From positions 17,323-81,322 of the forward strand of contig PHCS01000006.1 in assembly GCA_002840845.1 (NCBI GenBank): a DNA stretch of 64,000 nucleotides. Direction: 5' to 3'. The notes under the pieces were generated by a model. It was given only the letters and a program-made list of their open reading frames with translations, had not been told where the DNA came from and did no database searches. Shown here one piece after another: positions 1,117 to 37,722 of this stretch. The number at the start of each line of letters is the position of its first letter. Positions within the stretch are counted from its first letter, which is position 1. A program made the translations under genes and the position numbers. This stretch comes from Betaproteobacteria bacterium HGW-Betaproteobacteria-14 (GTDB lineage Bacteria; Pseudomonadota; Gammaproteobacteria; Burkholderiales; Rhodocyclaceae).

Positions 1117-1146
1117 TTAGTCCGGCGGACAAGCGCCCGTCTTACA
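1117..1146 (-). promoter_or_regulatory. ECF-type promoter of the YiiX-like gene
   Basis: On the minus strand TGTAAG (1146-1141) is followed by GGACTAA (1123-1117). The spacing of 23 nt from first base to first base matches the other sites of this family in the window. Transcription would start about 50 nt before the ATG at 1058. Assignment to an ECF sigma factor is inference from the repeated pattern. Confidence 0.6.
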
Positions 1147-1189
1147 GATCACGGCATCGCAATCGGGCAAAGAAATTTTCTGCGCGAGG

Positions 1190-1218
1190 CGTAATTAAAC
1201 CTTACCTGCCGCGACAAA
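1190..1218 (+). promoter_or_regulatory. ECF-type promoter of the first small peptide gene (weaker match)
   Basis: CGTAATTAAA at 1190 and CGACAAA at 1212-1218 have the same 22-nt spacing as the better copy at 6709-6737 in front of the paralogous gene. The first T of TGTAA is replaced by C. The 5' leader that follows is almost identical in the two copies. Confidence 0.5.
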
Positions 1219-1286
1219 GGGGCGCTGGCCGGATGGATCGGCCGGAAAGAAGCAACCCAACCCCAACTTTGCACAAGGAGACTGAC

Positions 1287-1430
1287 ATGAAAACCCTCTC
1301 GACCCTGCTCGCTGTACTGGCTACTGCTACCGCCCTGTTTGCCGCCCCGGCCGTTCAGGCTGCCGACAATCAGGAACGTGTGAATCCGCACGCCGTGCTG
1401 CCATTTCCCGGGGTGGAATTCGCGCGCTGA
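1287..1430 (+). CDS. Small secreted peptide, 47 residues (copy 1)
   Basis: An ATG with a strong AAGGAG site 7 nt upstream opens a 47-codon gene. The product has a typical signal peptide (MKTLSTLLAVLATATALFAA, cleavage after AQA or VQA), leaving a mature peptide of about 22-23 residues with the core NPHAVLPFPGVEF. A paralogue at 6806-6949 has an almost identical mature part and leader. A third gene at 37770 carries a similar NPxxxLxxPG core. I do not recognise the family; it has no cysteine, so a disulfide-stabilised toxin is unlikely. Possible roles are a periplasmic signalling or stress peptide, or an envelope-binding factor; none is shown. Confidence 0.7.
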   Translation: MKTLSTLLAVLATATALFAAPAVQAADNQERVNPHAVLPFPGVEFAR

Positions 1431-1438
1431 GCCGGCGG

Positions 1439-1475
1439 GCGATGCGGCTCTTCCGTGAAGGGGGAGCCGCATCGC
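1439..1475 (+). terminator. Perfect 12-bp hairpin after the first peptide gene
   Basis: GCGATGCGGCTC (1439-1450) pairs perfectly with GAGCCGCATCGC (1464-1475) across a 13-nt loop, starting 9 nt after the stop codon. There is no T-run behind it, so it may be an attenuating or RNA-protecting hairpin rather than a classic intrinsic terminator. The rest of 1476-1708 shows nothing I can assign. Confidence 0.4.
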
Positions 1476-1708
1476 CGCGCGCATGGCGAAGACGGGCTCG
1501 ACCACGTTGTTCCGTCTTCGTGGTCCGTGCGATAGGGCACGGTTTTGCAATTCGGTAATGGCCGCAACGCATGTCAGTGGCAATACGAATTGCCCTTCCG
1601 GCCGGCCAAGCCTATTTTCTACATTCCGTATCCACGCGGCGAAGAACGCCAACAAGAACGCGCCATGAACGGAACTGAGCACATTTTCCTCTGCCCGATT
1701 GATTACCC

Positions 1709-3715
1709 GTGAGCGGGCCATCGCATCTGCCTGAACGCCGCCCTGGCGAAAGTTCCAGGCGGCTGCTTGCCTACCTGATCGTGACGGCCGCCTATTTTGC
1801 CGTCGGCGCAGTCTCGCTCGTCGTCTACCCGGCGGGCAGCGGCCTCGCCGGCATCTGGCCGGCGTCCGGCATAGCCGTCGCCGCCGTGCTGCTGCTGGGG
1901 CCGCAGGCGTCGCTGGCCGTGCTGGCGGGTGACCTCCTGGTCGGACTGTATGCCGGGCTGGCGCTTGCGCCGGCCCTCGTTTCCGCCCTGGCCGGCGCCG
2001 GAGAATCGCTGCTTGCCTGGTACCTGCTGACGCGCGTGCATCCGATCGACATGCGCCTGGAACGCGTGCGCGATGTCGCCGCCTTCATCGGCCTGGGCGT
2101 GGTGCTGAACGCCGTTCTCTGTTTCGTCGTCAGATATCTGCTCGCGGCGAATGGCCAGACGACGGAATTCATTGCCGCCGCCGCGCTCGGCCACGGGCTG
2201 GGCGTGCTGATCGTCACGCCCGTCGTCCTGAGCTGGCGCGTCCAGCCTGTTCCTGCCCCGTTTTCCGTCGAGCTGCTGCTGCTGCTGCTGGCCACGGTAC
2301 TGATCAACGTCGCTACCTTCTCGACCTCGCTACTGACGCCCGGTTCGCCGCTGCTGTATGCCGTCTACCTCGTTGTGCTGTGGGCCGCGCTGCGCTTCGG
2401 TCCGCGCGAGACGTCTGCCGTGCTGCTGGTGACGGCGCTCTTCGCCATGTGGGCCGCCGGCCGCCGCAGCGGCCCCTTCCTGCTGGCCAGCCCCAGCGAA
2501 GCTCTGTCCTCGTTGGGGGTGTTCCTGCTGGTGTCGGCAGCGACGGCCCTGCTGCTGGCGGCGGCCGTGCGGGAAAAGCGCGCCTCCGACCTGCGCGTCG
2601 CCGAGAGCGAGAGCGTGCACCGCACGCTCATCGAGCAGATGGGCGAGGGCGTTGTAATGATTGACGCCGACGGGCGACTAACCTACATCAGCGACCGCTT
2701 CTGCGAAATCTGCGCACGGCAGCGTGAGGGGCTGATGGGCGTGCGCCTGGCGGACATCGTGCGCGAGGCCGACCGGGAGGCGATCGAGGCGGCGCTGCAG
2801 CATTCCGTCATCGACAGCGACACGCGCATCGAGACCGTGCTCAGGCAGCCCTCGGGACAAGCGCTGGCAGTCTCTCTGGCGCTGCGCCGGCTGGACGATG
2901 CACAGGACGGCAAGGCAGTTACGCTGGCGATGCTGTCCGACGTGACGGAGCGCCGGCGAGCCGAGGAACTGGCCAGGCTGCATCTGCAGCAGTTGGCGCA
3001 CATGGGAAGGCTTAAATCGATGGATGAAATGGCGATTGCGATGGCGCACGAAATCACCCAGCCCCTGACGGCGATCATGAGCTATACCCAGGCCGGGCGG
3101 CGGCTCCTGAGCGACGGACACGCCGACGACCCGGCCCTCGCCGAGGCCCTGGCGGGCGCCAACGGGGAGGCGCGGCGGGCCCGCGCCATCGTGCATCGCA
3201 TCCGCGATTTCGTGCAGAACCGTCCGGCACGGCCGGTCACCATCGAGGCGGCGTTCCTCGTCCGGGAGGCGATCCGTTTCGCCGAGCCGGAAGCGCGCCA
3301 GCATGGCGTCGAGCTGCGCCTGGCGCCAGGGGCCCCCTCCTGCAGCGTGCATGCCGACCCGATCCAGATCCAGCAGGTGCTGCTCAATCTGGTGCGCAAC
3401 GCCGTCGAGGCCATTGCGGCGGCGGCTTGCCCGCGCCGCAGCGTCACGCTGCGCGTGCGCCTGCTCGAAGTGGAAAACGAGGTCGAGTTTTCCGTCGAGG
3501 ACAGCGGCCCGGGCCTGCCGGCGTCGCATGTCGAGCGGGTGTTCGAGCCCTTCTTCACCACCAAGGAGGACGGCGTCGGCATCGGGCTGGCGCTCTGCCA
3601 TTCGATCGTCGATGCCCACGGCGGCAGCATCCGCGCCGAACCGCATCCGGACGGCGGCGCCGTCTTCCTCTTCAGCCTGCCTGTCATCGCTCATGCAACC
3701 CGAGCGCACGCCTGA
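1709..3715 (+). CDS. MASE1-PAS sensor histidine kinase (FixL/TodS-like output)
   Basis: A 668-residue membrane sensor kinase. Residues 20-290 contain about eight hydrophobic helices of MASE1 type. A PAS domain follows (about 300-415), then a dimerisation/phosphoacceptor domain with His447 in MAHEITQPL, and an ATPase domain with N-box (LLNLVRNAVEA), G1 (VEDSGPGLP) and G2 (GVGIGLALC). The start is a GTG at 1709 with no convincing ribosome site, so the true start may be slightly downstream. The 3' end overlaps the response regulator gene by 23 bp, so the two form one unit. The signal is not known; MASE1 domains sense unidentified membrane cues. Confidence 0.88.
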   Translation: MSGPSHLPERRPGESSRRLLAYLIVTAAYFAVGAVSLVVYPAGSGLAGIWPASGIAVAAVLLLGPQASLAVLAGDLLVGLYAGLALAPALVSALAGAGESLLAWYLLTRVHPIDMRLERVRDVAAFIGLGVVLNAVLCFVVRYLLAANGQTTEFIAAAALGHGLGVLIVTPVVLSWRVQPVPAPFSVELLLLLLATVLINVATFSTSLLTPGSPLLYAVYLVVLWAALRFGPRETSAVLLVTALFAMWAAGRRSGPFLLASPSEALSSLGVFLLVSAATALLLAAAVREKRASDLRVAESESVHRTLIEQMGEGVVMIDADGRLTYISDRFCEICARQREGLMGVRLADIVREADREAIEAALQHSVIDSDTRIETVLRQPSGQALAVSLALRRLDDAQDGKAVTLAMLSDVTERRRAEELARLHLQQLAHMGRLKSMDEMAIAMAHEITQPLTAIMSYTQAGRRLLSDGHADDPALAEALAGANGEARRARAIVHRIRDFVQNRPARPVTIEAAFLVREAIRFAEPEARQHGVELRLAPGAPSCSVHADPIQIQQVLLNLVRNAVEAIAAAACPRRSVTLRVRLLEVENEVEFSVEDSGPGLPASHVERVFEPFFTTKEDGVGIGLALCHSIVDAHGGSIRAEPHPDGGAVFLFSLPVIAHATRAHA

Positions 3716-6708: not shown

Positions 6709-6737
6709 TGTAATAAATCGTCTCCTGCGGCGACAAA
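6709..6737 (+). promoter_or_regulatory. ECF-type promoter of the second small peptide gene
   Basis: TGTAATA (6709-6715) and CGACAAA (6731-6737), spaced 22 nt first base to first base. This is the better of the two duplicated promoter copies. The leader that follows (to 6805) is nearly identical to that at 1219-1286. Confidence 0.6.
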
Positions 6738-6805: not shown

Positions 6806-6949
6806 ATGAAGACCATTTCCACCCTGCTGGCCGCACTGGCCACTGCTGCCGCGCTGTTTGCCGCCCCGGCCGTCCAGGCTGCCGACAATCAGGAACGTGT
6901 GAATCCGCACGCCGTGTTGCCTTACCTGGGATCGGAATTCGCACGCTAG
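6806..6949 (+). CDS. Small secreted peptide, 47 residues (copy 2)
   Basis: A paralogue of the gene at 1287-1430: same length, same signal peptide architecture and the same mature start (ADNQERVNPHAVLP), differing only in the last residues (YLGSEFAR here, FPGVEFAR there). An AAGGAG lies just upstream. The duplicated block covers promoter, leader and gene, about 241 bp. It is followed directly by a strong terminator, so it is a monocistronic unit. Function unknown. Confidence 0.7.
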   Translation: MKTISTLLAALATAAALFAAPAVQAADNQERVNPHAVLPYLGSEFAR

Positions 6950-7020: not shown

Positions 7021-7050
7021 TGTAAGCATTGCCGATCATGAGCCGACCAC
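7021..7050 (+). promoter_or_regulatory. Candidate ECF-type promoter of the phosphonate-type transporter operon
   Basis: TGTAAGC (7021-7027) and CGACCAC (7044-7050), spacing 23 nt. It starts right after the terminator, in the correct position for the operon at 7178. The -10 is less good than in other copies. Confidence 0.45.
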
Positions 7051-7177: not shown

Positions 7178-8047
7178 ATGAACCGCATGCTGCGCACCGT
7201 CCTCGGCCTGCTGGCCGCCGCCCTCATTCTGCCGGCCGCGGCGGCCGAGCCGCCGCTCAAGTTCGGCGTCGGCCTGTTCCAGCCCGACAAGGACAGGAAC
7301 GACGCCACCTATCGCCCGCTCGCGGCCTATCTGGAAAGGACGTTCGGGCGCAAGGTCGAGTTGCGCACCGTGGATACCTGGGAAGGCTTGGCCAAGTCGC
7401 TCGCCAATGGCGAGACCGATCTGGCGCTGATGGGGCCGTGGGGCTACGTGCTCGCCAACAACGAGGCCGGCGCCCAGGCCGTCGCCACCATCCTATACGA
7501 CGGCAAGCCCGAGTATTACGCGATCATGGTGACCCACCCCGATTCCGGCATCAAGTCCGTGGCCGATCTCAAGGGACGCAGCTTCGCCTTCGGCGACAAG
7601 GGATCGACCTCGGGCTACCTGATCCCGCTGCATTACTTCATGAAGCAGGGCATCAATCCGGACACCTACTTTGCCAAAGTGATGCACGCCAAGCATCAGG
7701 CCATCGAGACCCAGGTCGCGCAGGGCGTGCTCGATGCCGGGGCCGACTACAACCGCAACCGCAACGCGATGATCGAACAGGGCCTGATCAAGGCCGAGCG
7801 CTCGGTGGTCTTCTGGCAGTCGGATCCCTTGCCCAATGACGCCTTTGCCGTCAGCGCCGGCCTGGCCCGGGACGCGGCCTTCGTGGCGAAGCTGCGCGCC
7901 GCCCTGGAAGGGGTGTCCGGAGAACTGAAGGCGCAGCCCGACCTGCTGCCTGCCCACTACGGCGGCTTCGTCGCCCGCGACAACGGCTTCTACAAGCCGA
8001 TTCGCGATGCCGGGCTCGCCACCGGCAAGCTGCAGCCGAGGCGATGA
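7178..8047 (+). CDS. PhnD-like ABC transporter substrate-binding protein
   Basis: A 289-residue periplasmic binding protein with a signal peptide ending in AAA-EPPLKFGV. The body matches the phosphate/phosphite/phosphonate family: a DLALMGPWGYV segment that lines the ligand site and SVADLKGRSFAFGDKGSTSGYL, typical of PhnD/PtxB proteins. The gene is followed with overlaps by permease and ATPase genes, so it is the receptor of one importer. The ligand is uncertain: phosphonate, phosphite or another oxyanion. The start at 7178 follows AAGGGAG. Confidence 0.8.
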   Translation: MNRMLRTVLGLLAAALILPAAAAEPPLKFGVGLFQPDKDRNDATYRPLAAYLERTFGRKVELRTVDTWEGLAKSLANGETDLALMGPWGYVLANNEAGAQAVATILYDGKPEYYAIMVTHPDSGIKSVADLKGRSFAFGDKGSTSGYLIPLHYFMKQGINPDTYFAKVMHAKHQAIETQVAQGVLDAGADYNRNRNAMIEQGLIKAERSVVFWQSDPLPNDAFAVSAGLARDAAFVAKLRAALEGVSGELKAQPDLLPAHYGGFVARDNGFYKPIRDAGLATGKLQPRR

Positions 8048-12204: not shown

Positions 12205-12519
12205 GTGTTCCGGCAGGACCTGTCGGAACCCTTCGGGCGCACCATGGGCTGCACCGCGCGCGAGCTGCGCGGCTGGCTGGTGCGTGCCCTGCCCGGCGCA
12301 CGACTTGCCATCGAGGGAGACGACGATGAAGGCCTTTGCCGGGCGCGCTTCGAAGACGGCGAACTGCACATCGCCTGGCGGACGCTCGCGCCGCGCAGGA
12401 TCGCGTTGCTGAGCATTCCGCAACTGCAGGTCCGCTTTCACTACACCGGCCTTTCGCCGCAGCGTCGCCGCGATGTCCAGGATTACTTCGACAGGGCCAC
12501 CCAGCGCGGCGGAGGATAG
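12205..12519 (+). CDS. Hypothetical protein, about 104 residues
   Basis: An open frame of 104 codons from a GTG at 12205, or 91 codons from the ATG at 12244. It starts 6 bp after the HAD gene, so it is probably translated with it. The sequence is basic at the C-terminus (HYTGLSPQRRRDVQDYFDRATQ) and has no signal peptide or membrane helix. Codon use looks like its neighbours. I do not recognise the family. Confidence 0.6.
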   Translation: MFRQDLSEPFGRTMGCTARELRGWLVRALPGARLAIEGDDDEGLCRARFEDGELHIAWRTLAPRRIALLSIPQLQVRFHYTGLSPQRRRDVQDYFDRATQRGGG

Positions 12520-14963: not shown

Positions 14964-14993
14964 TTCGTCTGGCGGAGCGGTCGATTTCTTACA
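14964..14993 (-). promoter_or_regulatory. ECF-type promoter of the lipoprotein gene
   Basis: On the minus strand TGTAAG (14993-14988, continuing AAAT) and AGACGAA (14970-14964), spacing 23 nt. It lies 46 bp before the start codon. The remaining gap to 15151 shows nothing else. Confidence 0.6.
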
Positions 14994-15847: not shown

Positions 15848-16113
15848 CAGTGCGGCGCCAGGCGGATCAACGCCGCCCTGAACTGATCGGGGGGCGGTAG
15901 TGCCGAAAACGTCAGCTCGCCGTTGATGGCGATGGCCGGCATGCTCAGCACCCCGAGAGACACCGCGTAGTCGAGCTCCTCCATGACATCGATCTCGCGC
16001 CAGAAGACATTGTCCTCGCCGAGCAGGCTGATTGCGACGGCGCGGAGTTCGCCCTGTGCGGCTGCGCACTTGCCGCATCCCGGCGCGGCGATGACCTCGA
16101 TCCTGACGCTCAT
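15847..16113 (-). CDS. Small thioredoxin-fold protein
   Basis: An 88-residue single thioredoxin-like domain with the redox pair Cys13-Gly-Lys-Cys16 and a cis-Pro loop [14 protein letters not shown]. It lacks a signal peptide, so it is cytoplasmic or acts on the cytoplasmic face. The ATG at 16113 overlaps the MerR-type gene's stop, and its own stop overlaps the CcdA-like start, giving a tight three-gene operon. Such proteins (redox-active disulfide protein 2 type) commonly accompany CcdA-like carriers. Confidence 0.75.
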
Positions 16114-16526: not shown

Positions 16527-16550
16527 GATGCCCTCCAAGCCGAAGCCACA

Positions 16551-16581
16551 ATATAAACCTTGGAGTCAACACTACGGTCAA
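16551..16581 (-). promoter_or_regulatory. MerR-type promoter with 19-bp spacer
   Basis: On the minus strand TTGACC (16581-16576) and TTATAT (16556-16551) are separated by 19 bp, the overlong spacer that MerR proteins untwist. It lies 25 bp before the regulator's start codon, so the operon is probably autoregulated. Confidence 0.7.
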
Positions 16582-16651
16582 GCGTTCATCCAAATAGTTT
16601 TGCAGGAGCGAAATCTGGAGAGAGGCCGCGGTCCCTCGCCGGACCCGCCGT

Positions 16652-16915: not shown

Positions 16916-16994
16916 GGCGTTTCTCCAAAAGTGGGTGAGGTCGCGGCGCGCGAGAATTGCCCGCTTCGGCAGCGAGGCGCCCGGCGCACCATTA

Positions 16995-17594: not shown

Positions 17595-19013
<1,419 letters not shown>

Positions 19014-23609: not shown

Positions 23610-23639
23610 TGTAAGGAACGGCACGCTTCCCGAGACAAA
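23610..23639 (+). promoter_or_regulatory. ECF-type promoter of the bdhA operon
   Basis: TGTAAGG (23610-23616) and AGACAAA (23633-23639), spacing 23 nt, located 57 bp before the GTG start at 23696. Confidence 0.6.
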
Positions 23640-24478: not shown

Positions 24479-24487
24479 GGCCAGCCG

Positions 24488-25273: not shown

Positions 25274-25284
25274 GGAGCATGCGC

Positions 25285-26427
25285 ATGGCCAAATCACGTA
25301 CCAAATCAGCGTCACATACTCCTTCGCCCGTAGCCGCCGGCAATTTGCAGCTACCCGGCCAGGTGGTGCTGGTCATGCAAGGCGGCGGCGCGCTCGGCGC
25401 CTTCCAGGCCGGCGTCTATGAAGCCATGCACGAAGCCGGCATCGAGCCGGACTGGGTGGTGGGCACCTCGATCGGCGCCATCAACGGCGCGATCATCGCG
25501 GGGAATTCGTCGCAAAACCGCCTGTCGCGACTGCGCCAGTTCTGGGAAATGGTTGCTAGTGGTGCCGCTTCGGCGCCACACTGGAAGGCGTTCGGGATGG
25601 GCAACCTGATGCACAACCTGAACACGGTGGCCCGCGGAATTCCGGGCTTCTTTGCGCCGAACCCGGCGTCATGGGTCGGTGCGCACACGCCGTTGGGGAT
25701 AAGCGATGCCTCGTATTACAGTACGGCGCCATTGCGCCGCACACTCGCCGAACTGGTGGATTTCGGCCGCATTACCAAGGGCGGAACCCGCCTGACATTG
25801 GGTGCCGTCAATGTGAATTTGGGCCGCATGCGCTATTTTGACAGTCGCGACGAGGTGGTAGGGATCGATCACGTCATGGCCTCCGGAGCCTTGCCGCCGG
25901 CGTTTCCGGCAGCGGTAATCGACGGCGAACCGTTCTGGGACGGCGGCATTTATTCCAATACGCCGATCGAAGTCGTGATGGATGACCATCCGCGCCGCGA
26001 TTCGGTGATCTTTGCCGCCCAGCTTTGGCAGCAGGAAGACGCGGAGCCGCAGACGATTCAGCACGTTATGGCACGTCTCAAGGACATCCAGTATTCAAGT
26101 CGGGCGGCAAGCCATATTGCGCGACAGCAGCAGATTCACCACCTGCGCCACGTCGTGCGCGAGCTTGGCCGCCTGATGCCGGCAAGTGCGCGCGCCAAGC
26201 CCGAGATCAAGGAACTGCTCGGCTGGGGCTGCGGCACGGTGATGCATGTCCTGCCCTTGCAGGCGCCCCTGCTGGACGGCGACGATCACACCAAGGACAT
26301 CGATTTCACGCCGGGCGGCATCCGTGCCCGCTGGGCGGCGGGGCGGGAACTGACGCGCCGCCGGCTCGCCGAGGCGCCCTGGCGCGGCGCGGCCGACCCC
26401 AGGGCCGGCATCCTGGTGCACGATTGA
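25285..26427 (+). CDS. Patatin-like phospholipase with DUF3734 tail
   Basis: A 380-residue protein. The patatin fold shows the oxyanion loop QGGGALGAFQAG, nucleophile Ser in GTSIG and the catalytic Asp in FWDGGIYSNTP. A DUF3734-type C-terminus follows (from about residue 255). The start at 25285 has AAGGAG at ideal distance; the ATG six bases earlier is too close. Third gene of the bdhA-adc unit. Such proteins may hydrolyse lipids or intracellular polyester; the latter would suit the context but is inference. Confidence 0.85.
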   Translation: MAKSRTKSASHTPSPVAAGNLQLPGQVVLVMQGGGALGAFQAGVYEAMHEAGIEPDWVVGTSIGAINGAIIAGNSSQNRLSRLRQFWEMVASGAASAPHWKAFGMGNLMHNLNTVARGIPGFFAPNPASWVGAHTPLGISDASYYSTAPLRRTLAELVDFGRITKGGTRLTLGAVNVNLGRMRYFDSRDEVVGIDHVMASGALPPAFPAAVIDGEPFWDGGIYSNTPIEVVMDDHPRRDSVIFAAQLWQQEDAEPQTIQHVMARLKDIQYSSRAASHIARQQQIHHLRHVVRELGRLMPASARAKPEIKELLGWGCGTVMHVLPLQAPLLDGDDHTKDIDFTPGGIRARWAAGRELTRRRLAEAPWRGAADPRAGILVHD

Positions 26428-27893: not shown

Positions 27894-28274
27894 CTACAGG
27901 CTGAAGCTGCCGCGCCAGGCGCCCCCCGCGAAGTCGAGGCTGACCTTTCTGGGCGCGATTTTCCCGACCGCCGCGGTATGCAGCTCCATTTCCGGCTGGC
28001 GGCCCAGGCGCTCGGCGACCTCGAAGCTGCAGGCGGTCGAAGTCACCGGGCGGAAATACAGCAGCAGATTGTCGCCGGCCGCGACGGCCGTGCGGTCTCG
28101 GGCGTCGTCGCGGAAGTGCACGAACTTCTTTACCAGGCAGGAGAAATACAGCTCCAGCTCGACGAACAGCGGCGTCGTCCGCCTGGACAGCTCGCGGGCG
28201 GCGGCCGGGGTCCATTCGACCAGGACGTTCCTGCCGTTGATGACGACGGTCGATTCGAGGCATTTTGCGGTCAT
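27894..28274 (-). CDS. Hypothetical protein, 126 residues
   Basis: An orphan gene on the minus strand with a strong GGAGG site before its ATG. The product has no signal peptide. It contains the stretch VELELYFSCLVKKFVHF and ends in a short basic segment; no family is recognised. A degenerate ECF-type promoter may lie upstream (28309-28338). The coding frame is supported by the ribosome site and by normal codon use. Confidence 0.65.
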   Translation of the reverse strand: MTAKCLESTVVINGRNVLVEWTPAAARELSRRTTPLFVELELYFSCLVKKFVHFRDDARDRTAVAAGDNLLLYFRPVTSTACSFEVAERLGRQPEMELHTAAVGKIAPRKVSLDFAGGAWRGSFSL

Positions 28275-28308: not shown

Positions 28309-28338
28309 AGGGTCGGTTCGGCATGGCGTTTTCTTACA
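28309..28338 (-). promoter_or_regulatory. Degenerate ECF-type promoter candidate
   Basis: TGTAAGAAAA (from 28338 on the minus strand) is a perfect -35, but the expected -10 at 28315-28309 reads CGACCCT instead of CGACTAA. It lies 35 bp before the hypothetical gene. Confidence 0.3.
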
Positions 28339-28977: not shown

Positions 28978-29006
28978 TGTAAGGTTTACGGCGTCCCGGC
29001 GACTAA
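28978..29006 (+). promoter_or_regulatory. ECF-type promoter of the VTT-flavoprotein operon
   Basis: TGTAAGG (28978-28984) and CGACTAA (29000-29006), spacing 22 nt. This is one of the best matches in the window and lies 53 bp before the start codon at 29060. Confidence 0.68.
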
Positions 29007-29059: not shown

Positions 29060-31204
29060 ATGCTGCGCAAACTGCTGGTGGCGGCGGCGATCGGCCTGAC
29101 GATCGGTCTGTATTTCATTTTCGACCTCGGGCAGTACCTCAGCCTCGACGCGCTCAAGGCGCAACAGGCGGCCATCGAGGGCTACCGGACGGCGCACCCC
29201 TGGCTTGCCGCCGCGATCTTTTTCGCCCTGTATGTCCTGATGGCCGCCCTGTCGCTGCCGGGCGCGGCGCTGATGACGCTCGCCGGCGGGGCGGTGTTCG
29301 GCCTGTGGTGGGGCACGCTGATCGTCTCCTTCGCCTCCAGCGCCGGCGCGCTGGTGGCCTTTCTCGTGGCGCGCTTCCTGCTGCGCGGCTGGGTGACGCA
29401 GCGCTTCGGCCAGCGCCTGGCGGCCATCGACGAGGGCATACGGCGCGAGGGGGCGTTCTACCTCTTCGCCCTGCGCCTGGTGCCGGTCTTCCCCTTCTTT
29501 CTCATCAACCTGCTGTTCGGGCTGACGGCGATGAAGGCGCGCACCTACTACTGGGTGAGCCAGCTCGGCATGCTGGCCGGCACAGCGGTCTACGTGAACG
29601 CCGGCACCCAGCTCGCCCGCCTCGAGTCGCTCTCCGGCATCGTCTCGCCGGCCCTGCTCGGCTCCTTCGCCCTGCTCGGCGTGTTCCCGCTCGTCGCGCG
29701 CAAGCTCGTCGGGTCGCTGCGCGCGAAAAAGGTGTATGCACCCTGGAAGAAGCCCGCCCGCTTCGACCGCAACCTCGTCGTCATCGGCGCCGGCAGCGCC
29801 GGCCTGGTGACGGCCTACATCGCCGCCGCCGTGAAGGCGAAGGTGACCCTGGTCGAGAAGCACAAGATGGGCGGCGACTGCCTCAACACCGGCTGCGTGC
29901 CCTCGAAGGCGCTGATCCGCTCGGCGAAATTCCTCTCGCACCTGCAGCGGGCGGAGGAATTCGGCCTGCGCCGTCCCACAGGGACCGACTTTTCCTTCGC
30001 GGAGGTGATGGAACGGGTGCACAAGGTGGTGCGGACGGTCGAGCCGCACGATTCCGTCGCGCGCTACACCGAGTTGGGGGTCGATGTCGTCGAGGGTTCG
30101 GCGAGGATCGTTTCGCCCTGGGAGCTGGAGATCACCCGGAACAACGGCGCCACCGAGAAGCTGACCACGCGCAGCATCGTCGTTGCCGCCGGGGCGCGGC
30201 CCTTCGTGCCGCCGATCTCAGGTATTGAAGAAGTAGGCTATCTTACTTCGGACACGGTCTGGAACCTGCGCGAACTGCCGAAGCGCCTGGTGGTGCTGGG
30301 CGGCGGCCCCATCGGCTCGGAACTTACGCAGGCCTTCGCCCGCTTCGGCGCCAAGGTGACGCAGGTCGAGATGGCGCCTCGCATCATGATCCGCGAAGAC
30401 CCGGAAGTGTCGGAACTCGTGACAAAGCGCTTCCGCTCCGAGGGCATCGACGTGCTGGTCAATCACAAGGCCAAGCGGTTTGCGGTCGAGAACGGCGAGA
30501 AGATTCTCATTGCCGAGCATGCGGGCGGCGATGTGCGCATCCCGTTCGACGCCGTGCTGGTGGCCGTCGGCCGGGTGGCCAATCTCAAGGGCTATGGCCT
30601 GGAAGACATCGGCGTCGCCACCTCGCGCACGGTCGAGGTCAATGAATTCCTGCAAACCAATGTCCCGAACATCTACGCGGCCGGCGACGTCGCCGGGCCC
30701 TACCAATTCACGCATGCCGCCGCCCATCAGGCCTGGTACGCCGCCGTCAATGCCCTGTTCGATCCGCTGAAGAAGTTCAAGGCCGACTATTCGGTGATTC
30801 CCTGGGCGACCTTCGTCGAACCGGAGGTGGCGCGTGTCGGCCTGAACGAGCAGGAAGCGAAGGAGAAGGGCATTCCCTACGAGGTGAGCCGTTACGGCAT
30901 TGACGACCTCGACCGCGCCATCGCCGACGGCGAAGCGCATGGTTTCATCAAGGTACTCACTGTACCGGGCAAGGATCGCATCCTCGGCGTGACCCTCGTC
31001 GGCGAACACGCCGGCGACCTGCTTGCCGAATACGTGCTGGCGATGAAGCATGGCATCGGCCTCAACAAGATCCTCGGCACGATCCATATCTACCCGACGC
31101 TGGCGGAAGCCAACAAGTATGTTGCCGGCGTATGGAAGAAGGCGCACGCGCCGCAAGGATTGCTGGCCTGGGTGGAACGCTTCCATGCCTGGAGGCGCGG
31201 ATGA
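29060..31204 (+). CDS. VTT (TVP38/TMEM64) membrane domain fused to a mercuric-reductase-like flavoprotein
   Basis: A 714-residue fusion. Residues 1-220 are a SNARE-associated/VTT membrane domain (about five helices; GAALMTLAGGAVFGLWWGT). From about residue 235 a complete pyridine nucleotide-disulfide oxidoreductase follows: FAD motif IGAGSAGLVTAYIAA, redox pair Cys274/Cys279 in GGDCLNTGCVPSK, GGGPIGSELTQAF, IYAAGDVAGPYQF and the C-terminal dimerisation domain with IHIYPTLAEA. The vicinal C-terminal cysteines of true MerA are absent. The electron acceptor is unknown. The ATG at 29060 has GGGAG at good distance; the ATG at 29054 is too close. Confidence 0.88.
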   Translation: MLRKLLVAAAIGLTIGLYFIFDLGQYLSLDALKAQQAAIEGYRTAHPWLAAAIFFALYVLMAALSLPGAALMTLAGGAVFGLWWGTLIVSFASSAGALVAFLVARFLLRGWVTQRFGQRLAAIDEGIRREGAFYLFALRLVPVFPFFLINLLFGLTAMKARTYYWVSQLGMLAGTAVYVNAGTQLARLESLSGIVSPALLGSFALLGVFPLVARKLVGSLRAKKVYAPWKKPARFDRNLVVIGAGSAGLVTAYIAAAVKAKVTLVEKHKMGGDCLNTGCVPSKALIRSAKFLSHLQRAEEFGLRRPTGTDFSFAEVMERVHKVVRTVEPHDSVARYTELGVDVVEGSARIVSPWELEITRNNGATEKLTTRSIVVAAGARPFVPPISGIEEVGYLTSDTVWNLRELPKRLVVLGGGPIGSELTQAFARFGAKVTQVEMAPRIMIREDPEVSELVTKRFRSEGIDVLVNHKAKRFAVENGEKILIAEHAGGDVRIPFDAVLVAVGRVANLKGYGLEDIGVATSRTVEVNEFLQTNVPNIYAAGDVAGPYQFTHAAAHQAWYAAVNALFDPLKKFKADYSVIPWATFVEPEVARVGLNEQEAKEKGIPYEVSRYGIDDLDRAIADGEAHGFIKVLTVPGKDRILGVTLVGEHAGDLLAEYVLAMKHGIGLNKILGTIHIYPTLAEANKYVAGVWKKAHAPQGLLAWVERFHAWRRG

Positions 31205-32022
31205 GGGGCGCGCGCGCCGTGGCGTGGGGACTGACTTTCTCCTGCGCCCTCTTCGCCGCGCCCGCGCGGGCCTTCGATCACGGCCACGCCGCCTGGAGCG
31301 CGCTGCTGGCGCGGCACGTGGCGGTTGCAACCGACGGCAACGCCAGCGCCGTGCGCTACGCCGCGCTGCAGGCGGAGCGGCCCGCGCTGCAGGCCTATCT
31401 GGACAGCCTCTCCGCCGTCGCTGAGAGCGAGTACGCCGGCTGGACGAAGCCGCAGCGGCTGGCCTTCCTGATCAACGCCTACAACGCCTTCACCGTCGAG
31501 CTGGTGCTGACGAAATACCCGGCGCTGGAATCGATCAGGGAACTCGGCGGGCTCTTCCAGTCGCCCTGGAAGAAGCGCTTTTTCACGCTGCTGGGACGGC
31601 CGCGCAGCCTCGACGACGTCGAGCACGGCATGATCCGGGCGCCGGATGCCTTCGACGAGCCGCGCATCCACGTTGCCCTGGTCTGCGCCTCCGTCGGCTG
31701 CCCGATGCTGCGGCCCGAAGCCTATGTCGCCGCGCGGCTCGAGGCGCAGCTCGAGGACGGCATGCGCCGCTTTCTGTCGGACGCCTCGCGCAACCGCTTC
31801 GAGGCTGCGGACGGGCGGCTGCGGGTCTCGAAGCTGTTCGACTGGTACGGCAAGGATTTCGAACGAGGCCATGCCGGCTTCGATTCGCTCGGGGCGGTCT
31901 TCGCCCGCTACGCCGACCGGCTCGCGCCGGACGCGGCGGGCCGCGCCCGCATCCGCGCGGGCGACTATGCGCTGTCGTATCTCGAATACGACTGGCGGCT
32001 GAACGATGCCGGCCGCCCATGA
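31201..32022 (+). CDS. DUF547 family secreted protein
   Basis: A 273-residue protein with a signal peptide (cleavage ARA-FDHGH) and a DUF547 domain: LAFLINAYNAFTVELVL, then VALVCASVGCPMLRPEAY with two cysteines, and a C-terminal DYALSYLEYDWRLN. ATGA overlap with the VTT-flavoprotein gene couples the two. DUF547 proteins occur across bacteria and plants with no settled function; here a role with the membrane redox protein is likely. Confidence 0.85.
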   Translation: MRGARAVAWGLTFSCALFAAPARAFDHGHAAWSALLARHVAVATDGNASAVRYAALQAERPALQAYLDSLSAVAESEYAGWTKPQRLAFLINAYNAFTVELVLTKYPALESIRELGGLFQSPWKKRFFTLLGRPRSLDDVEHGMIRAPDAFDEPRIHVALVCASVGCPMLRPEAYVAARLEAQLEDGMRRFLSDASRNRFEAADGRLRVSKLFDWYGKDFERGHAGFDSLGAVFARYADRLAPDAAGRARIRAGDYALSYLEYDWRLNDAGRP

Positions 32023-32155: not shown

Positions 32156-32185
32156 TGTAAGAAAGCCCGCCCCCGGGAAGACTAA
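32156..32185 (+). promoter_or_regulatory. ECF-type promoter of the DEP-domain operon
   Basis: TGTAAGA (32156-32162, continuing AA) and AGACTAA (32179-32185), spacing 23 nt, lying 32 bp before the ATG at 32218. Confidence 0.66.
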
Positions 32186-32217: not shown

Positions 32218-32679
32218 ATGCCCCCACCCAGGAAAATTCTTCTGGCACGCCCCCATGCATTCATCGTGTCGGAAATACGCACCTTTCTGGAGCACGCCGG
32301 CTATGCGCCGGAAAAGGCCGACAGCGTGGCGGACATTGAGTCCAGCCGGCACGGCGCGCTGGCCGGCGCCATCGTGTCGACCGCCGTCGTCTCGTCGATC
32401 GGCGCGAGTGCCGAGGAGGTGTTCGCCGCATTGCGCCGTAAATACCCCCGCCTGCCCGTCCTGTTCGCCGGCCTGGTCGATTTCGCGAAGATGCAGGATC
32501 TGGTCCGGCGCATCGTCGCTCCCCTGCACGCGGACGCGCAGATCCTGCCCATGGCGCCCGCCACCGAAAGCCACGCTGGACTGGGGCGCGAGAACGTGTT
32601 CCCGGTCCTGCGCAAGGAGGATCTGGCCCCGGGCGACGCCGCTGCGCTCGCCGCACGGATCGTGCGCAGGCATTTTTGA
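32218..32679 (+). CDS. Receiver-like protein of unknown function
   Basis: A 153-residue protein beginning KILLARPHAFIVSEIRTFLEHAGY, like a response-regulator receiver, and including a FAALRRKYPRLPVLFAG helix-strand unit. The acidic pocket and phosphorylatable Asp expected of a working receiver are not evident, so it is probably a pseudo-receiver. AAGGAG precedes the ATG. It is followed 24 bp later by a DEP-domain gene that also begins with a receiver-like region. Confidence 0.65.
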   Translation: MPPPRKILLARPHAFIVSEIRTFLEHAGYAPEKADSVADIESSRHGALAGAIVSTAVVSSIGASAEEVFAALRRKYPRLPVLFAGLVDFAKMQDLVRRIVAPLHADAQILPMAPATESHAGLGRENVFPVLRKEDLAPGDAAALAARIVRRHF

Positions 32680-32703: not shown

Positions 32704-33801
32704 ATGAAACCGAACCAGGCCGCCACGCTTTGGCTATCGACGCGGGATCAGCCCTTGCGCGCATTGTTGCGGGCGGCGTTCGCCTCGCAGGACATCACGC
32801 CGCTGGAGTTTCCGCCGGAGGATCTGCTGGCGGGCGCGGCCCGCAACGGCCGCGCCGATCCGCCTGCAGGCAGCCTCCTGCTCGTCGACCTGGCCTGGGC
32901 AGCGGCCGATGCGCGCGGCGCGGCCGAGATCGTCCGCCGCGCCCGGTGCCTCCCCTGGCGGCCCGCCGTGCTGGCGATCGCGCCGCTCGCCCGGACGGTC
33001 TGGCAAAACGAAAACGAATGGGCCAGGCGGCTGACCGGGCACGATCTGCTCGCCCGGCCGGAGGATTCGCAGCGCGAAACCGTCTCGGCCTTCCTGTCGG
33101 CGGCGATGCCCTTCGCCGGCTCCGGCGAGCCGGAACTGGGCCGCCTTTATACCCACCTGCGCGTGCTGGTCGGGCCCGCTCGTGGCGACTCGGCGGAAGC
33201 GACGATCCGGCGCGGCACCGGCGCTTCCCCGGCCGAACTGGCGGCGGCGCTCGCTGCGGGCGTGAAAGTGGCCGACCGCAGGTACCGGCTGAAGAAATAT
33301 CCCGAGTGCTTCGTCGGCGGCGAGGCCGTGGACTGGCTGATCGGGCGCTACCGCGTCGGCCGCGACGATGCGGTGGCGCTGGGCGAGGCCCTCAGGCGCG
33401 CCGGGCTGCTCCACCATGCCGTCAACGAACAGCCCTTCCGCGACGGCGAATTCTTCTATCGCGTGGCTGTGCCCGGCCGCTTCGATGCGGTGCCGCTCGA
33501 TGCGGCGCTCGCCTTCCTGCGCCAGGCACCGGGCCTGGTGGCGGACCGCAGCTGGCGCGGCGCCGACTTCCCGCAATGTCTGGTGGGCGGCGAAGCCGTC
33601 GCTGCGCTGGCCGCGCAGTTCCGTCTCACGCGCGCGGAAGCCACCCTGCTCGGACAGAGCCTGGCCGATCTCGGCCTGCTGCGCCACGTCGCCGACGAGC
33701 ATCCGTTCGCGGACGACTATCTGTTCTATCGCATCGCCGCGCCGCGCACCCCCCGGCCGGCCGCGGCGGCCGCCGCGGACAGGCCTTCGCTGGCAGTATA
33801 A
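32704..33801 (+). CDS. Protein with receiver-like N-terminus and two DEP domains
   Basis: A 365-residue protein. The first 140 residues resemble a degenerate receiver (LLLVDLAWAAADARG). Two DEP domains follow: about 185-255 (VADRRYRLKKYPECFVGGEAVDWL) and about 265-345 (WRGADFPQCLVGGEAVAAL). DEP domains bind membranes or partner proteins in eukaryotic signalling and are uncommon in bacteria. No membrane helix or catalytic site. Likely an adaptor in a stress pathway, given the shared ECF-type promoter upstream of its operon. Confidence 0.75.
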   Translation: MKPNQAATLWLSTRDQPLRALLRAAFASQDITPLEFPPEDLLAGAARNGRADPPAGSLLLVDLAWAAADARGAAEIVRRARCLPWRPAVLAIAPLARTVWQNENEWARRLTGHDLLARPEDSQRETVSAFLSAAMPFAGSGEPELGRLYTHLRVLVGPARGDSAEATIRRGTGASPAELAAALAAGVKVADRRYRLKKYPECFVGGEAVDWLIGRYRVGRDDAVALGEALRRAGLLHHAVNEQPFRDGEFFYRVAVPGRFDAVPLDAALAFLRQAPGLVADRSWRGADFPQCLVGGEAVAALAAQFRLTRAEATLLGQSLADLGLLRHVADEHPFADDYLFYRIAAPRTPRPAAAAAADRPSLAV

Positions 33802-33897: not shown

Positions 33898-34563
33898 ATG
33901 GCTGCCGTCAGCGCGAGCGATGACGCCTCCGGGCGGGTGCGCATCGCCATCCTGGCCAAGGCGCCGCTGCCGGGGCTGGCCAAGACGCGGCTGGCGCCGC
34001 GGCTGGGCGAGGCCGGCGCCGCCTGCCTGCAGCGCTGGCTGCTGCAGCGCGCGGTGGCGACTGCCGTGGTGGCGGACACCGGTCCGGTGGCGCTGTGGTG
34101 CGCGCCGGATACGCAGCACCCGGAGTTTCATCTGTGCCGCGCCTTCGGCCCGGTGAGCCTGCATCGGCAGCCCGAGGCGGACCTCGGCGCGCGCATGCTG
34201 GCGGCGCTGTCGCAGCCGCCCGTGCAGCCGACGCTGGTGATCGGCACCGATAGCCCGGCGCTCACGCCCGAGCTGCTGCGCCAGGCCGCCGGCGCCCTGC
34301 TGGGCGGAGACGACGCGGTCGTGCTGCCGGCCGAGGACGGCGGCTATGTACTGATCGGCCTGCGCCAAGCTTCCGCCGCGCCCTTCGACGGCGTGGCCTG
34401 GGGCGGCCCCCGTGTCATGGCGCAGACGCGCGAGCGCTTCGCCGCGGCGGGCTGGCGCTGGCGCGAACCGGCGACGCTGTGGGACGTGGACCGGCCGGAA
34501 GATTTCGACCGCCTCGCCGCCCTGTACCCCGACGTGCTGGACTGGCTGCGGGAGGCGGCGTGA
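33898..34563 (+). CDS. DUF2064 / TIGR04282-type glycosyltransferase-like protein
   Basis: A 221-residue protein with a nucleotide-sugar transferase-like fold: AILAKAPLPGLAKTRLAPRLG near the start, IGTDSPALTPELLRQA with the DxD-like Asp, and PAEDGGYVLIGL. These match the TIGR04282 family, whose reaction is undefined. Its 3' end overlaps the flavoprotein gene by 4 bp, so both are co-translated. Confidence 0.82.
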   Translation: MAAVSASDDASGRVRIAILAKAPLPGLAKTRLAPRLGEAGAACLQRWLLQRAVATAVVADTGPVALWCAPDTQHPEFHLCRAFGPVSLHRQPEADLGARMLAALSQPPVQPTLVIGTDSPALTPELLRQAAGALLGGDDAVVLPAEDGGYVLIGLRQASAAPFDGVAWGGPRVMAQTRERFAAAGWRWREPATLWDVDRPEDFDRLAALYPDVLDWLREAA

Positions 34564-35726: not shown

Positions 35727-36582
35727 GGCCACCCTCGCGCGGCCGCACGAGGACCTGCTCGCCAGCCTGCTGGTGATGGCCTGGATGGTGGAGGCGCGCG
35801 ACCCCTACACCAGCGGCCACCTCTGGCGCGTCTCGCGTTTCTCGCGGCTGCTCGCCCAGGACGCCGGCCTGGCCGAGAGCGATGTATCGCGCATCGCCAT
35901 CGGCGGCTTCCTGCACGACCTCGGCAAGGTCGGCGTGCCCGACCAGATTCTCAACAAGAAGGATCGATTGACCGAGGAAGAGTACGAGATCGTCAAGACG
36001 CACCCGGACGTCGGCTGGCGCATGCTGGCCGGCCATCCGCTGGCGCGGCTGGCCGAGGCGGCCGTGCGGGCCCACCACGAGACTCCCGACGGCGGCGGCT
36101 ATCCGCGCGGCCTGGCCGGGGCGGCGGTGCCGCTCGATGCGCGCCTCGTCGGCATCTGCGACGCCTTCGACGCCATGACCAGTTCGCGCCCCTACCGCAA
36201 GGGCATGCCCATCGTACGGGCGCTGAGCATCATCGAGGAAAACCTCGGCCGCCAGTTCGACCGCGACTTCGGCGGGCGCTTCCTCGCCCTCGGCCGCGCC
36301 GGCGCCCTCGACCACATCGCCGGCCACAGTGACGAGGGCATCCCGCTGCACGAGTGCATGATGTGCGGGCCGACCCTGGTGGTGCGCCGCGAGCAGAAAG
36401 CCGGCGAGCACGTCTATTGCCGCAATTGCGGCGGGGAGTACGCTACCGAGATGCGGGACGGACGGCTCGAGACGGTCTCCACCGGCCGCCAGGGGGCGCC
36501 GAAGGAACTGGAGGCCGAGGCCGATACGGCGCTGATCGCGCGGCTGGTGCGCGAATCGGCGCGTGCGCTGCTGGCCGGATAG
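35677..36582 (+). CDS. HD-GYP domain phosphodiesterase with C-terminal zinc ribbon
   Basis: A 301-residue protein. The HD-GYP domain (about 30-215) has HDLGKVGVP, HPDVGWRM, RAHHETPDGGGYPRGL and the DAFDAMTSSRPYR loop, so the metal site for c-di-GMP hydrolysis looks intact. It is followed by a zinc-ribbon-like CMMC...CRNC (about residues 226-251) not usual in this family. It starts 50 bp inside the preceding flavoprotein gene with its own AAAAGGAG. Likely lowers c-di-GMP; the zinc ribbon may regulate or target it. Confidence 0.88.
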   Translation: MSLLKGIARLFGPGGTEATLARPHEDLLASLLVMAWMVEARDPYTSGHLWRVSRFSRLLAQDAGLAESDVSRIAIGGFLHDLGKVGVPDQILNKKDRLTEEEYEIVKTHPDVGWRMLAGHPLARLAEAAVRAHHETPDGGGYPRGLAGAAVPLDARLVGICDAFDAMTSSRPYRKGMPIVRALSIIEENLGRQFDRDFGGRFLALGRAGALDHIAGHSDEGIPLHECMMCGPTLVVRREQKAGEHVYCRNCGGEYATEMRDGRLETVSTGRQGAPKELEAEADTALIARLVRESARALLAG

Positions 36583-36600
36583 CACAGGGAGAAGATTCGC

Positions 36601-36840
36601 ATGGCCTTTCACGCAAACCTTTTGAGCATCGCCTGCAGGCGCCCCATCGTACTGGCCGCGCTGCGCGTGGCGCTGGTGGTGGGGACGGTGCTGAACCTGA
36701 TCAACCAGGGCGAGCGGCTGCTCGCCGGATGGCCGCCCTCATGGTTCCACGTTGCGCTCAACTATCTGGTGCCGTTCTGCGTCTCCGGCTACAGCGCGGC
36801 GTGCAACGAACTGCGCCGCAACGAGGAGGGCGCCCCGTGA
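36601..36840 (+). CDS. nrtS: NrtS-like small membrane protein
   Basis: A 79-residue protein with two hydrophobic helices. The sequence LRVALVVGTVLNLINQGERLL plus LNYLVPFCVSGYSA is characteristic of NrtS, a small nitrate/nitrite transporter family. The stop codon overlaps the GTG of the next gene, an ECF sigma factor, so the pair is translationally coupled. Confidence 0.72.
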   Translation: MAFHANLLSIACRRPIVLAALRVALVVGTVLNLINQGERLLAGWPPSWFHVALNYLVPFCVSGYSAACNELRRNEEGAP

Positions 36841-37439
36841 CGGAAATGCACGACGGACCGATCATGGACGATGCGTATATCAGGGCGCTGCGGCCCGGCA
36901 TGATCCGCTTCGCCCGGATGCAGCTGCGCGATGACGAACTGGCGGAGGACGTCGTCCAGGATGCGCTGATCGCGGCGATGCACGGCGCGAAGGGCTTCGC
37001 CGGCCGCTCGGCGTTCGACACCTGGGTGCTGGCCATCCTGCGCAACAAGATCGCGGACGCGATCCGGCTGCGGAGCCGCTCGATCAACGTTTCGGCGCTG
37101 GCACCGGAGGAGGAGGGCCTCGACCAGGCGTTCGAGGCCCTGTTCAAGCCGAACGCGTACTGGTCGCCCCAGTCGCGTCCGCGCGACTGGGGCGATCCGG
37201 AGGATTCGTTGCAACGCGACCAGTTCTGGATCGTCTTCGAAGCCTGCCTGAAGCACCTGCCCGAGAACACCGCGCGCATTTTCATGATGCGCGAGTTCCT
37301 CGAGTTCGACACCTCCGAAATCTGCAAGGAACTCGCCATCAGCAGCGGCAACTGCCACGTCATCCTGCACCGGGCGCGCAACGCCCTGCGCGGCTGCCTC
37401 GAAGAGAACTGGTTCGACAAGGGAGAGCAAGCATGCTGA
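36837..37439 (+). CDS. ECF sigma factor (TIGR02943-like), copy 1
   Basis: A 200-residue sigma-70 family factor. Region 2 reads MIRFARMQLRDDELAEDVVQDALIAAMHG and region 4 ends with FDTSEICKELAISSGNCHVILHRARNALRGCLEENWF. A linker with the RDWGDPEDSL motif sits between them, as in the TIGR02943 type. GTG start at 36837 overlaps nrtS; ATGs at 36846 and 36864 are alternatives. Its 3' end overlaps a small zinc-binding anti-sigma gene. No ECF-type promoter lies directly upstream. Confidence 0.87.
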   Translation: MTEMHDGPIMDDAYIRALRPGMIRFARMQLRDDELAEDVVQDALIAAMHGAKGFAGRSAFDTWVLAILRNKIADAIRLRSRSINVSALAPEEEGLDQAFEALFKPNAYWSPQSRPRDWGDPEDSLQRDQFWIVFEACLKHLPENTARIFMMREFLEFDTSEICKELAISSGNCHVILHRARNALRGCLEENWFDKGEQAC

Positions 37440-37639
37440 GCTGCAAGGAGGTGACCCGGCTCCTTTCCGAGTCGCAGGATCGGGAACTGACTCTGTTCGA
37501 GGGCTTGCAGCTCAGGATGCATCTGGTGATGTGCAAGGGCTGCGCCAACTTCGACAGGCAGATGAAGTTCCTGCGCCGGGTGAGCCGGCAGTATGCGGAC
37601 AAGACGGTACGGGCCGACAGACCCGACCGCGGAGATTGA
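37433..37639 (+). CDS. Small zinc-finger anti-sigma factor, copy 1
   Basis: A 68-residue protein beginning MLSCKEVTRLLSESQDREL, with the ZAS-type motif His-x3-Cys-x2-Cys in MHLVMCKGCANF. It lacks a membrane helix, so it is a soluble anti-sigma. The ATG overlaps the sigma gene by 7 bp. A paralogue at 38607 has the same layout. Neisserial MseR-type proteins are similar in size and motif and act as redox or zinc-sensitive anti-sigma factors (family knowledge). Confidence 0.82.
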   Translation: MLSCKEVTRLLSESQDRELTLFEGLQLRMHLVMCKGCANFDRQMKFLRRVSRQYADKTVRADRPDRGD

Positions 37640-37693
37640 GGAGGCGCGACGCGATCGGGCTTCGCCCGGCTTCCGCCGTTTATTGCCCTGCCC

Positions 37694-37722
37694 TGTAATA
37701 AACCGCTTCGTGAGACGACCAA
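37694..37722 (+). promoter_or_regulatory. ECF-type promoter of the third small secreted peptide
   Basis: TGTAATA (37694-37700) and CGACCAA (37716-37722), spacing 22 nt, 48 bp before the ATG at 37770. The gene for a second sigma factor lies just downstream, so the promoter may also feed it. Confidence 0.6.

What the first reader, a model, noticed from the sequence alone, without database searches (positions are those of the whole stretch)
1117..37722. An ECF-sigma regulon written across the window: repeated TGTAAgaaa-N13/14-CGACtAA promoters
Seen: sites at 1117-1146(-), 1190-1218(+, weaker), 6709-6737(+), 7021-7050(+), 14964-14993(-), 23610-23639(+), 28978-29006(+), 32156-32185(+), 37694-37722(+), plus a degenerate one at 28309-28338(-). 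First base of -35 to first base of -10 is always 22-23 nt, and each lies 30-130 bp before a gene or operon start on the right strand. Two ECF sigma/anti-sigma pairs of one type lie in the same window. Inference: one of these factors reads these promoters, driving the YiiX-like protein, small secreted peptides, a phosphonate-type transporter, a lipoprotein, bdhA-adc-patatin, the VTT-flavoprotein/DUF547 pair and the DEP-domain operon. I do not know this regulon from the literature.
Basis: partly seen in the sequence, partly recalled or inferred. Interest (0 to 1): 0.85.

Follow-up and report, generated by a model that had tools for sequence, protein, structure and literature searches.

The report
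Sigma promoters, even inside sigma genes
A 64-kb stretch of an environmental bacterium's genome carries ten near-copies of one start signal, most of them likely read by two stress switches (sigma factors) encoded among them, and in many relatives a signal of the same form is spelled inside the switch gene itself, shortly before the gene for its likely brake, which it is predicted to turn on.

Summary
A matrix built only from other genomes returns nine of the ten (eight at a score where shuffles give none) plus one coding hit. Eight of nine exact matches in the 3.2-Mb genome lie on this 81-kb contig.

Both sigma/anti-sigma pairs score as TIGR02943 and antisigmaE, like meningococcal sigma-E/MseR. 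In 200 genomes of the order the 29-nt promoter occurs outside the sigma gene in 58/90 with this sigma family and 11/110 without. But a look-alike, TGTAA-N19-GGTCTNA, lies before sigma2 and goes with a third ECF sigma just outside the window.

Unexpected: in 46 of 80 named relatives a 29-nt promoter of this form (-10 GAC or GTC) lies inside the sigma gene, in codons of the predicted recognition helix, about 76 nt before the anti-sigma start; codon usage predicts 0.9. The Cys codon there is TGT in 66 of 68 C-K proteins, while other conserved Cys codons are ordinary. I read this as a promoter built into the sigma gene that makes the anti-sigma. The window's own sigma genes lack it. No transcript data were available.

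The parts
1117..1146 (-). promoter-like site before the YiiX-like gene 285-1058(-); TGTAA-N19-GACTAA here, GGTCTAA in sibling G011 and GGTCTAT in G008 (class A there)
1190..1218 (+). class B site (CGTAA) before 47-aa secreted peptide 1287-1430; TGTAA...CGACCAA at the matching place in G011
1287..1430 (+). small secreted-peptide-like gene, copy 1 (47 aa)
6709..6737 (+). class B site before peptide copy 2; matching sites in G011 and in G008 (L051 3657-3685)
6806..6949 (+). small secreted-peptide-like gene, copy 2 (47 aa); 7 database hits
7021..7050 (+). weak 30-nt site (GACCAC), 128 nt before PhnD-like binding protein 7178-8047
14964..14993 (-). 30-nt GAC site, 46 nt before lipoprotein-like gene 13845-14918(-), which matched no Pfam or NCBIfam family
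23610..23639 (+). 30-nt GAC site, 57 nt before 3-hydroxybutyrate dehydrogenase / acetoacetate decarboxylase / patatin-like genes 23696-26427
28309..28338 (-). degenerate site before small gene 27894-28274(-); G011 has CGTAAG...GGACTAA before the matching gene
28978..29006 (+). class B site, best matrix hit of the window, before VTT-flavoprotein 29060-31204 and DUF547 protein 31201-32022
32156..32185 (+). 30-nt GAC site, 33 nt before 32218-32679 and the DEP-domain gene 32704-33801
36837..37439 (+). sigma1, ECF sigma factor, TIGR02943 (251.6 bits, cut-off 162.2)
37433..37639 (+). anti-sigma1, zf-HC2 / antisigmaE, C4-H30-C34-C37
37694..37722 (+). class B site before peptide 37770-37955 and sigma2; matching sites in G011, G007 and G008
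37770..37955 (+). 61-aa secreted-peptide-like gene between the two sigma pairs
38038..38610 (+). sigma2, ECF sigma factor, TIGR02943 (225.5 bits, cut-off 162.2); 97% identical in G011
38607..38801 (+). anti-sigma2, antisigmaE, C4-H30-C34-C37

Best explanation
The repeated sites are likely promoters of ECF sigma factors: the TGTAA-N18-CGACYAA class is predicted to be read by the TIGR02943 sigma factors encoded in the window, and in 46 of 80 named relatives a promoter of this form (-10 GAC or GTC) lies inside the sigma gene itself, where it would drive the anti-sigma gene as a built-in brake. Shown: the sites, their places before genes, the clustering, the co-occurrence with the sigma family, and the DNA-level constraint inside the sigma genes. 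Inferred: (1) the short zinc anti-sigmas (C4-H30-C34-C37) hold sigma1 and sigma2 until a thiol or similar stress frees them, as proposed for MseR/HrsE relatives; (2) freed sigma starts class B genes (secreted peptides, VTT-flavoprotein/DUF547 operon, and in relatives ArsS-like, bufferin-like and thioredoxin-like genes); (3) sigma2 is itself switched on by a third ECF sigma encoded left of the window, which reads the look-alike TGTAA-N19-GGTCTNA and its own operon, so that the two systems form a cascade; (4) in relatives, but not in the window's own sigma genes, active sigma binds its own gene at the codons of its predicted -35-recognition helix and makes extra anti-sigma.
For: Sites and chance. 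Sigma family and anti-sigmas; C4/H30/C34/C37 as in MseR (PMC2893595 passages). Co-occurrence over 200 genomes. Spacing peak with the sigma gene masked. Clustering in sibling G011: 6 of 7 exact matches (3 GAC, 4 GTC) in C10:84703-115243 of a 3.4-Mb genome, in synteny. Congeners without a TIGR02943-type match: 8 of 10 have no GAC match. Third ECF: class A site (up to one mismatch) before it or its operon in 11 of 19 loci, 6 of these in genomes without such a sigma match. In-gene promoter: 46 of 79 readable sigma genes, 0.88 expected from protein and local codon usage; 10 of 20 clusters at 60% identity, 0.20 expected. Of 174 codon columns the three most constrained are TGT (z 20.3; 71/79, 10.8 expected), the xCG column (P, A, T or S, xCG in 70/76, z 8.4) and the TCT/ACC column (z 8.1), the cores of -35 and -10; two other conserved Cys columns use TGC as expected (70/78, 67.3 expected; 64/77, 66.4). 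Seven of 30 loci of a separate class-wide draw carry it with other amino acids around it.
Against: No transcript start or reporter was available for any of these sites. T or A in the -10 is no clean divider: of the 46 in-gene sites 26 have GTC and 20 GAC, and meningococcal sigma-E of this kind uses CGTCTAA. The 30-nt GAC sites fit neither class well. Two congeners with a sigma match, G003 and G013, have no GAC match. Eight of 19 third-ECF loci show no class A site, G001 (99% complete) among them, though the loci are short. Five named records (Neisseria, Acinetobacter, Enterobacter, Pantoea, Burkholderia) lack the in-gene site, and so do both window sigma genes. Overlap of the anti-sigma start with the sigma gene does not differ with the in-gene site (Fisher 0.10). 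The K/TGT link on independent tree pairs has too few pairs (5; median p 0.25). Intragenic sigma sites in other bacteria are often transcriptionally silent or may cause pausing (PMC10771440 passages). In one search, 31 listed hits inside sigma genes were taken out of the 58/90 figure; 9 hits were unlisted and could not be placed, and the rest were not each checked for being intergenic. In one search a scrambled -35 (AATGT) reached 3 at N18.
Confidence: 0.73

Rival explanations
1. One regulon: sigma1 or sigma2 (or both, with the same taste) reads every site, A and B, and the T/A and N18/N19 differences are tolerated variation.
For: One matrix finds nine of the ten sites; in-gene sites of this sigma family carry both GTC and GAC; meningococcal sigma-E of this kind uses CGTCTAA.
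Against: Class A sites occur before the third ECF in six genomes without a TIGR02943-type match; GAC peaks at N18 and GTC at N19 around 80 sigma loci.
Confidence: 0.15
2. The in-gene conservation is not a working promoter: the TGT, xCG and TCT codons are kept for translation, mRNA structure or by shared descent, or the site binds sigma without firing (silent or pausing site).
For: The helix residues constrain part of the match; rows are related and the tree-pair test has too few pairs; intragenic sigma sites elsewhere are often silent or may cause pausing (PMC10771440 passages).
Against: Four different amino acids all keep xCG while wobble bases of the spacer codons (Leu, Ile) vary; -35 and -10 bases and the 18-nt spacing equal the intergenic sites of the same family; an anti-sigma gene follows in 78 of 80 loci.
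Confidence: 0.2
3. The third ECF sigma alone drives all sites of the cluster; sigma1 and sigma2 are minor or act elsewhere.
For: It lies in the same cluster, and its own operon has the closest look-alike site.
Against: Class B goes with TIGR02943 in 58/90 against 11/110 genomes; the 10 genomes with the third ECF but no TIGR02943-type match have three GAC matches (G015, G020, G027), none of them CGACYAA.
Confidence: 0.05

Closest known systems
Meningococcal sigma-E (NMB2144) with MseR (NMB2145), PMC2893595
   Same: short zinc anti-sigma with C4/H30/C34/C37, its gene directly after the sigma gene; -35 GTMAGBWTT with 12-13 spacer; MsrA/MsrB as target (section 11 read, passages of other sections)
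   Different: -10 there is CGTCTAAH, class B here has CGACYAA; 7 genes shown there, here ten sites over 37 kb and two sigma paralogues; no in-gene site in the N. gonorrhoeae record looked at
Haemophilus influenzae RpoE2 / HrsE, PMC7907618
   Same: 67-aa cytoplasmic anti-sigma with the zinc residues, msrAB and a DoxX operon as targets; sigma and anti-sigma genes cotranscribed (passages read)
   Different: very limited autoregulation; no in-gene promoter in the passages read; other target set
Cupriavidus metallidurans RpoQ/RsqA with gigPABT (PMC10304878) and GIG/bufferin operons (PMC5413113)
   Same: ECF sigma gene beside DUF2282/DUF692/DoxX genes (passages); the third ECF here has similar-looking neighbours in congeners (names recalled)
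   Different: RsqA is predicted membrane-bound; no RpoQ-dependent gig promoter had been shown there (passages)
Caulobacter sigV promoter inside the upstream cabp gene, PMC13171946
   Same: a promoter embedded in the 3' end of a coding sequence for the next, overlapping gene of an ECF system (passages)
   Different: there it makes a sigma factor from inside another gene; here the site is in the sigma gene's own recognition-helix codons and faces the anti-sigma gene

Membership tests
TIGR02943 ECF sigma factors with NF052368 (antisigmaE) anti-sigmas | sigma scores over the curated cut-off | tested here: met
   251.6 and 225.5 bits, cut-off 162.2
TIGR02943 ECF sigma factors with NF052368 (antisigmaE) anti-sigmas | anti-sigma scores over the curated cut-off and has C4, H30-x3-C34-x2-C37 | tested here: met
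   79.1 and 67 bits, cut-off 50; residues read
Neisserial sigma-E / MseR regulon | -35 GTMAGBWTT with spacer 12-13 | tested here: inconclusive
   spacing fits; GTAAG in seven of the ten sites, GTAAT in three; the full GTMAGBWTT only at 28978
Neisserial sigma-E / MseR regulon | -10 CGTCTAAH | tested here: not met
Neisserial sigma-E / MseR regulon | msrA/msrB among the targets | tested here: inconclusive
   a class A site lies before an MsrB-like gene on C16 (name recalled), which I assign to the third ECF
Neisserial sigma-E / MseR regulon | release of sigma by a change in the anti-sigma | not testable with these tools
   needs biochemistry
NF009170 (PRK12517) for the third ECF | score over the curated cut-off | tested here: not met
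   189.6 bits, cut-off 197

The most novel reading that the evidence does not exclude
Probability: 0.7. Interest if true: 0.88.

Novelty: new variant of a known kind. Interest (0 to 1): 0.74.

Why it matters
For the window: a stress regulon that is physically clustered, kept in synteny in a sibling species, and wired as two interlocking ECF systems with nearly the same promoter, a natural case for how sigma specificities part. For the family: a promoter inside the recognition-helix codons would be a dual-use sequence in which protein and promoter evolve under one constraint; it would explain a striking codon bias and give a negative feedback that needs no extra DNA. It can be tested with one synonymous codon change.

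Tried and rejected
Chance or repeats: rejected by the matrix scan, shuffles and contig concentration. All exact hits taken as promoters: rejected; many hits in relatives fell in the sigma gene (seen), were first set aside as coding coincidence, and only the codon tests turned them into a finding. Site 2653(+) as a promoter: set aside, inside a gene and its -10 not kept in G011. Clean T/A split by sigma: too simple. In-gene site tied to separated anti-sigma starts: not found (Fisher 0.10). Tree-pair test of K and TGT: too few pairs. Control families of the codon test were not all flat: best columns z 5.7, 5.1 and 10.3 in three neighbour families and 11.4, 8.5, 8.4 and 8.1 in 17 third-ECF genes, against 20.3 for TGT in 79 sigma genes. 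Structure prediction was not tried. Searches (open-access papers; listings, plus passages of PMC13171946 and PMC10771440) showed no description of a sigma promoter inside its own gene before the anti-sigma gene.
Full report
1. The observation. All ten sites exist as written. A matrix from 28 sites of other genomes, none from the window, was run over both strands. The best hits were 28978, 2653, 6709, 37694, 32156, 23610, 14964, 7021 and 1190, all at 16 or more, then 28309 at 12.6; 1117 fell below 12. Twenty second-order Markov shuffles gave a mean of 0.15 hits at 14 and none at 16. In the 3.23-Mb genome TGTAAK-N17/18-GACNAA has 9 exact matches, 8 on contig C81 that holds the window (81,322 bp), and 3 for the reversed pattern.

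2. The sigma factors. Both pairs score as TIGR02943 sigma and NF052368 antisigmaE over the curated cut-offs, with the zinc residues C4, H30, C34, C37. MseR of meningococci has exactly these positions (PMC2893595, passages), and its sigma-E promoter is GTMAGBWTT, 12-13 nt, CGTCTAAH (section 11 read). HrsE of Haemophilus is of the same kind, and hypochlorite raises expression of its sigma gene (PMC7907618, passages).

3. Two interleaved classes. Class B is TGTAA-N18-CGACYAA. Class A is TGTAA-N19-GGTCTNA. On C81 class A lies at 12423-12452(-) and 12467-12496(+), left of the window, before a thioredoxin-like/CcdA-like/third-ECF operon and before a Cys-rich protein gene, and at window 37973-38002(+) before sigma2, with GGTCTAA in G011 and G007. 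The third ECF has a class A site (up to one mismatch) before it or its operon in 11 of 19 loci (two lie in stretches my simple gene caller marked as coding), six of them in genomes without a TIGR02943-type match; 8 of 19 show none. Hence the proposed cascade: third ECF, then sigma2, then class B. The YiiX site is GGTCTAA in G011, GGTCTAT in G008 and GGACTAA in the window. The 30-nt GAC sites of the window stay unassigned.

4. Class B goes with the sigma family. Among 15 congeners, 8 of 10 without a sigma match have no GAC match, and 3 of 5 with one have at least one; G003 and G013 have none. In 200 genomes of the order TGTAAK-N16-CGACYAA was found in 66 of 90 genomes with TIGR02943 and 11 of 110 without; after taking out 31 hits inside sigma genes it is 58 of 90 and 11 of 110 (Fisher 3.9e-16), 113 and 15 hits, four of the 15 in one 68%-complete genome. 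The reversed pattern has 38 and 28 hits. Of 159 hits 150 were listed; the other nine could not be placed, and I did not check each remaining hit for being intergenic. One GAC and one GTC hit come from G011 itself (L106).

5. The in-gene promoter. In 46 of the 80 named loci TGTAAG-N17-G[AT]C[CT]AA lies in the sigma gene, in frame, as codons of C-K-x-x-x-I-x-x-[TS]-N, the predicted region 4.2 helix (assignment from family knowledge, not from a structure). The -10 is GTCTAA in 20, GACCAA in 17, GTCCAA in 6 and GACTAA in 3. It ends 39-138 nt (median 76) before the first possible anti-sigma start in the 45 where one was found; later starts would lengthen this. With the protein fixed and local codon usage the expected number is 0.88 of 79 (one row with a stop was dropped). 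At 80, 70 and 60% clustering: 34 of 59 (0.74 expected), 23 of 38 (0.51), 10 of 20 (0.20). Column test: TGT 71/79 (10.8 expected, z 20.3); next xCG z 8.4 and TCT/ACC z 8.1; other conserved Cys columns 70/78 and 64/77 TGC as expected; median z of 174 columns 1.4. In C-K proteins TGT is 66/68, in other C-x proteins 5/11 (Fisher 4e-5). Controls: three neighbour families reach z 5.7, 5.1 and 10.3, the third ECF 11.4. In a class-wide draw 44 of 369 genomes had the family; of the 30 loci given (one is the window's own) seven have the strict site. Of 58 loci in that set and the relatives, 22 had a readable C-K helix, 18 with TGT, and 28 another C-x helix, 8 with TGT; eight could not be read this way, and some repeat named loci. 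Five further named records lack the site. The motif needs 10 changes on the sigma tree and occurs on deep branches, so I read it as old with several losses; the window's sigma1 and sigma2 (TGC codons) lack it. None of the 46 loci with the in-gene site has a class A or B site in up to 450 nt upstream of sigma on the same strand; 3 of 34 without it do (some loci hold little upstream DNA), too few to conclude.

6. Targets. Window: two 47-aa and one 61-aa secreted-looking peptides, YiiX-like, PhnD-like transport, lipoprotein-like, 3-hydroxybutyrate dehydrogenase/acetoacetate decarboxylase/patatin-like, VTT-flavoprotein/DUF547, DEP operon. The cluster also holds arsenosugar-type genes (ArsS TIGR04167 left of the window, TIGR04282 at 33898-34563). 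In relatives class B lies before ArsS-like, VTT-flavoprotein-like, thioredoxin-like and bufferin-like genes (names recalled from sequence). A Pantoea plasmid record has sigma, zf-HC2, DoxX and DUF692 genes side by side. Theme: thiol, metalloid and envelope stress; the inducing signal is not known.

7. What is known nearby. A promoter inside the upstream gene cabp makes Caulobacter sigV (PMC13171946, passages), so in-gene promoters in ECF systems exist; 92 of 193 Streptomyces sigma-E ChIP sites are intragenic, and that paper recalls that such sites are mostly silent or may cause pausing (PMC10771440, passages). Neither describes, in the passages seen, a sigma promoter in its own recognition-helix codons.

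8. Verdict. Likely promoters of a known kind of ECF system with a changed -10, two interleaved classes, and in relatives a promoter-like sequence inside the sigma gene that I consider the most novel point. All functional steps are inferred from sequence. On checking, the probability of the in-gene reading was lowered from 0.72 to 0.70 and the main confidence from 0.74 to 0.73, because most in-gene sites have GTC, not GAC, and because of the silent-site precedent.

Noticed in passing
window 1287-1430, 6806-6949, 37770-37955: Two families of tiny secreted-looking peptides (47 and 61 aa) with class B sites before them; 7 and 2 database hits, none with a Pfam domain listed.
   Followed up: partly
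window 2653-2681(+): Second-best matrix hit of the window lies inside a kinase-like gene; -10 not kept in G011, so probably chance.
   Followed up: yes
G000 contigs: G+C of fetched stretches runs from 0.51 to 0.70; C14, C74 and C79 are near 0.57-0.58 while C81 is 0.66-0.68, so the assembly may hold more than one organism or large islands.
   Followed up: partly
window about 15152-21316: MerR-type regulators, a reductase and an IS110-like transposase (names recalled) lie within the cluster; the matching regulator and reductase genes in G011 stand in another order.
   Followed up: no
loci, HAD-like family of 27: One valine column (alignment column 261) is GTA in 10 of 21 where 0.8 is expected (z 10.3), perhaps another signal in coding sequence.
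   Followed up: no
L054 3808-4002: G007 has a gene 75% identical to anti-sigma1 away from sigma1, between glycosyltransferase-like and ArsS-like genes.
   Followed up: no
L167, L172, L182: Bins named Omnitrophota and Elulimicrobium hold relatives of this sigma with zinc anti-sigmas, a possible transfer or mis-binning.
   Followed up: no
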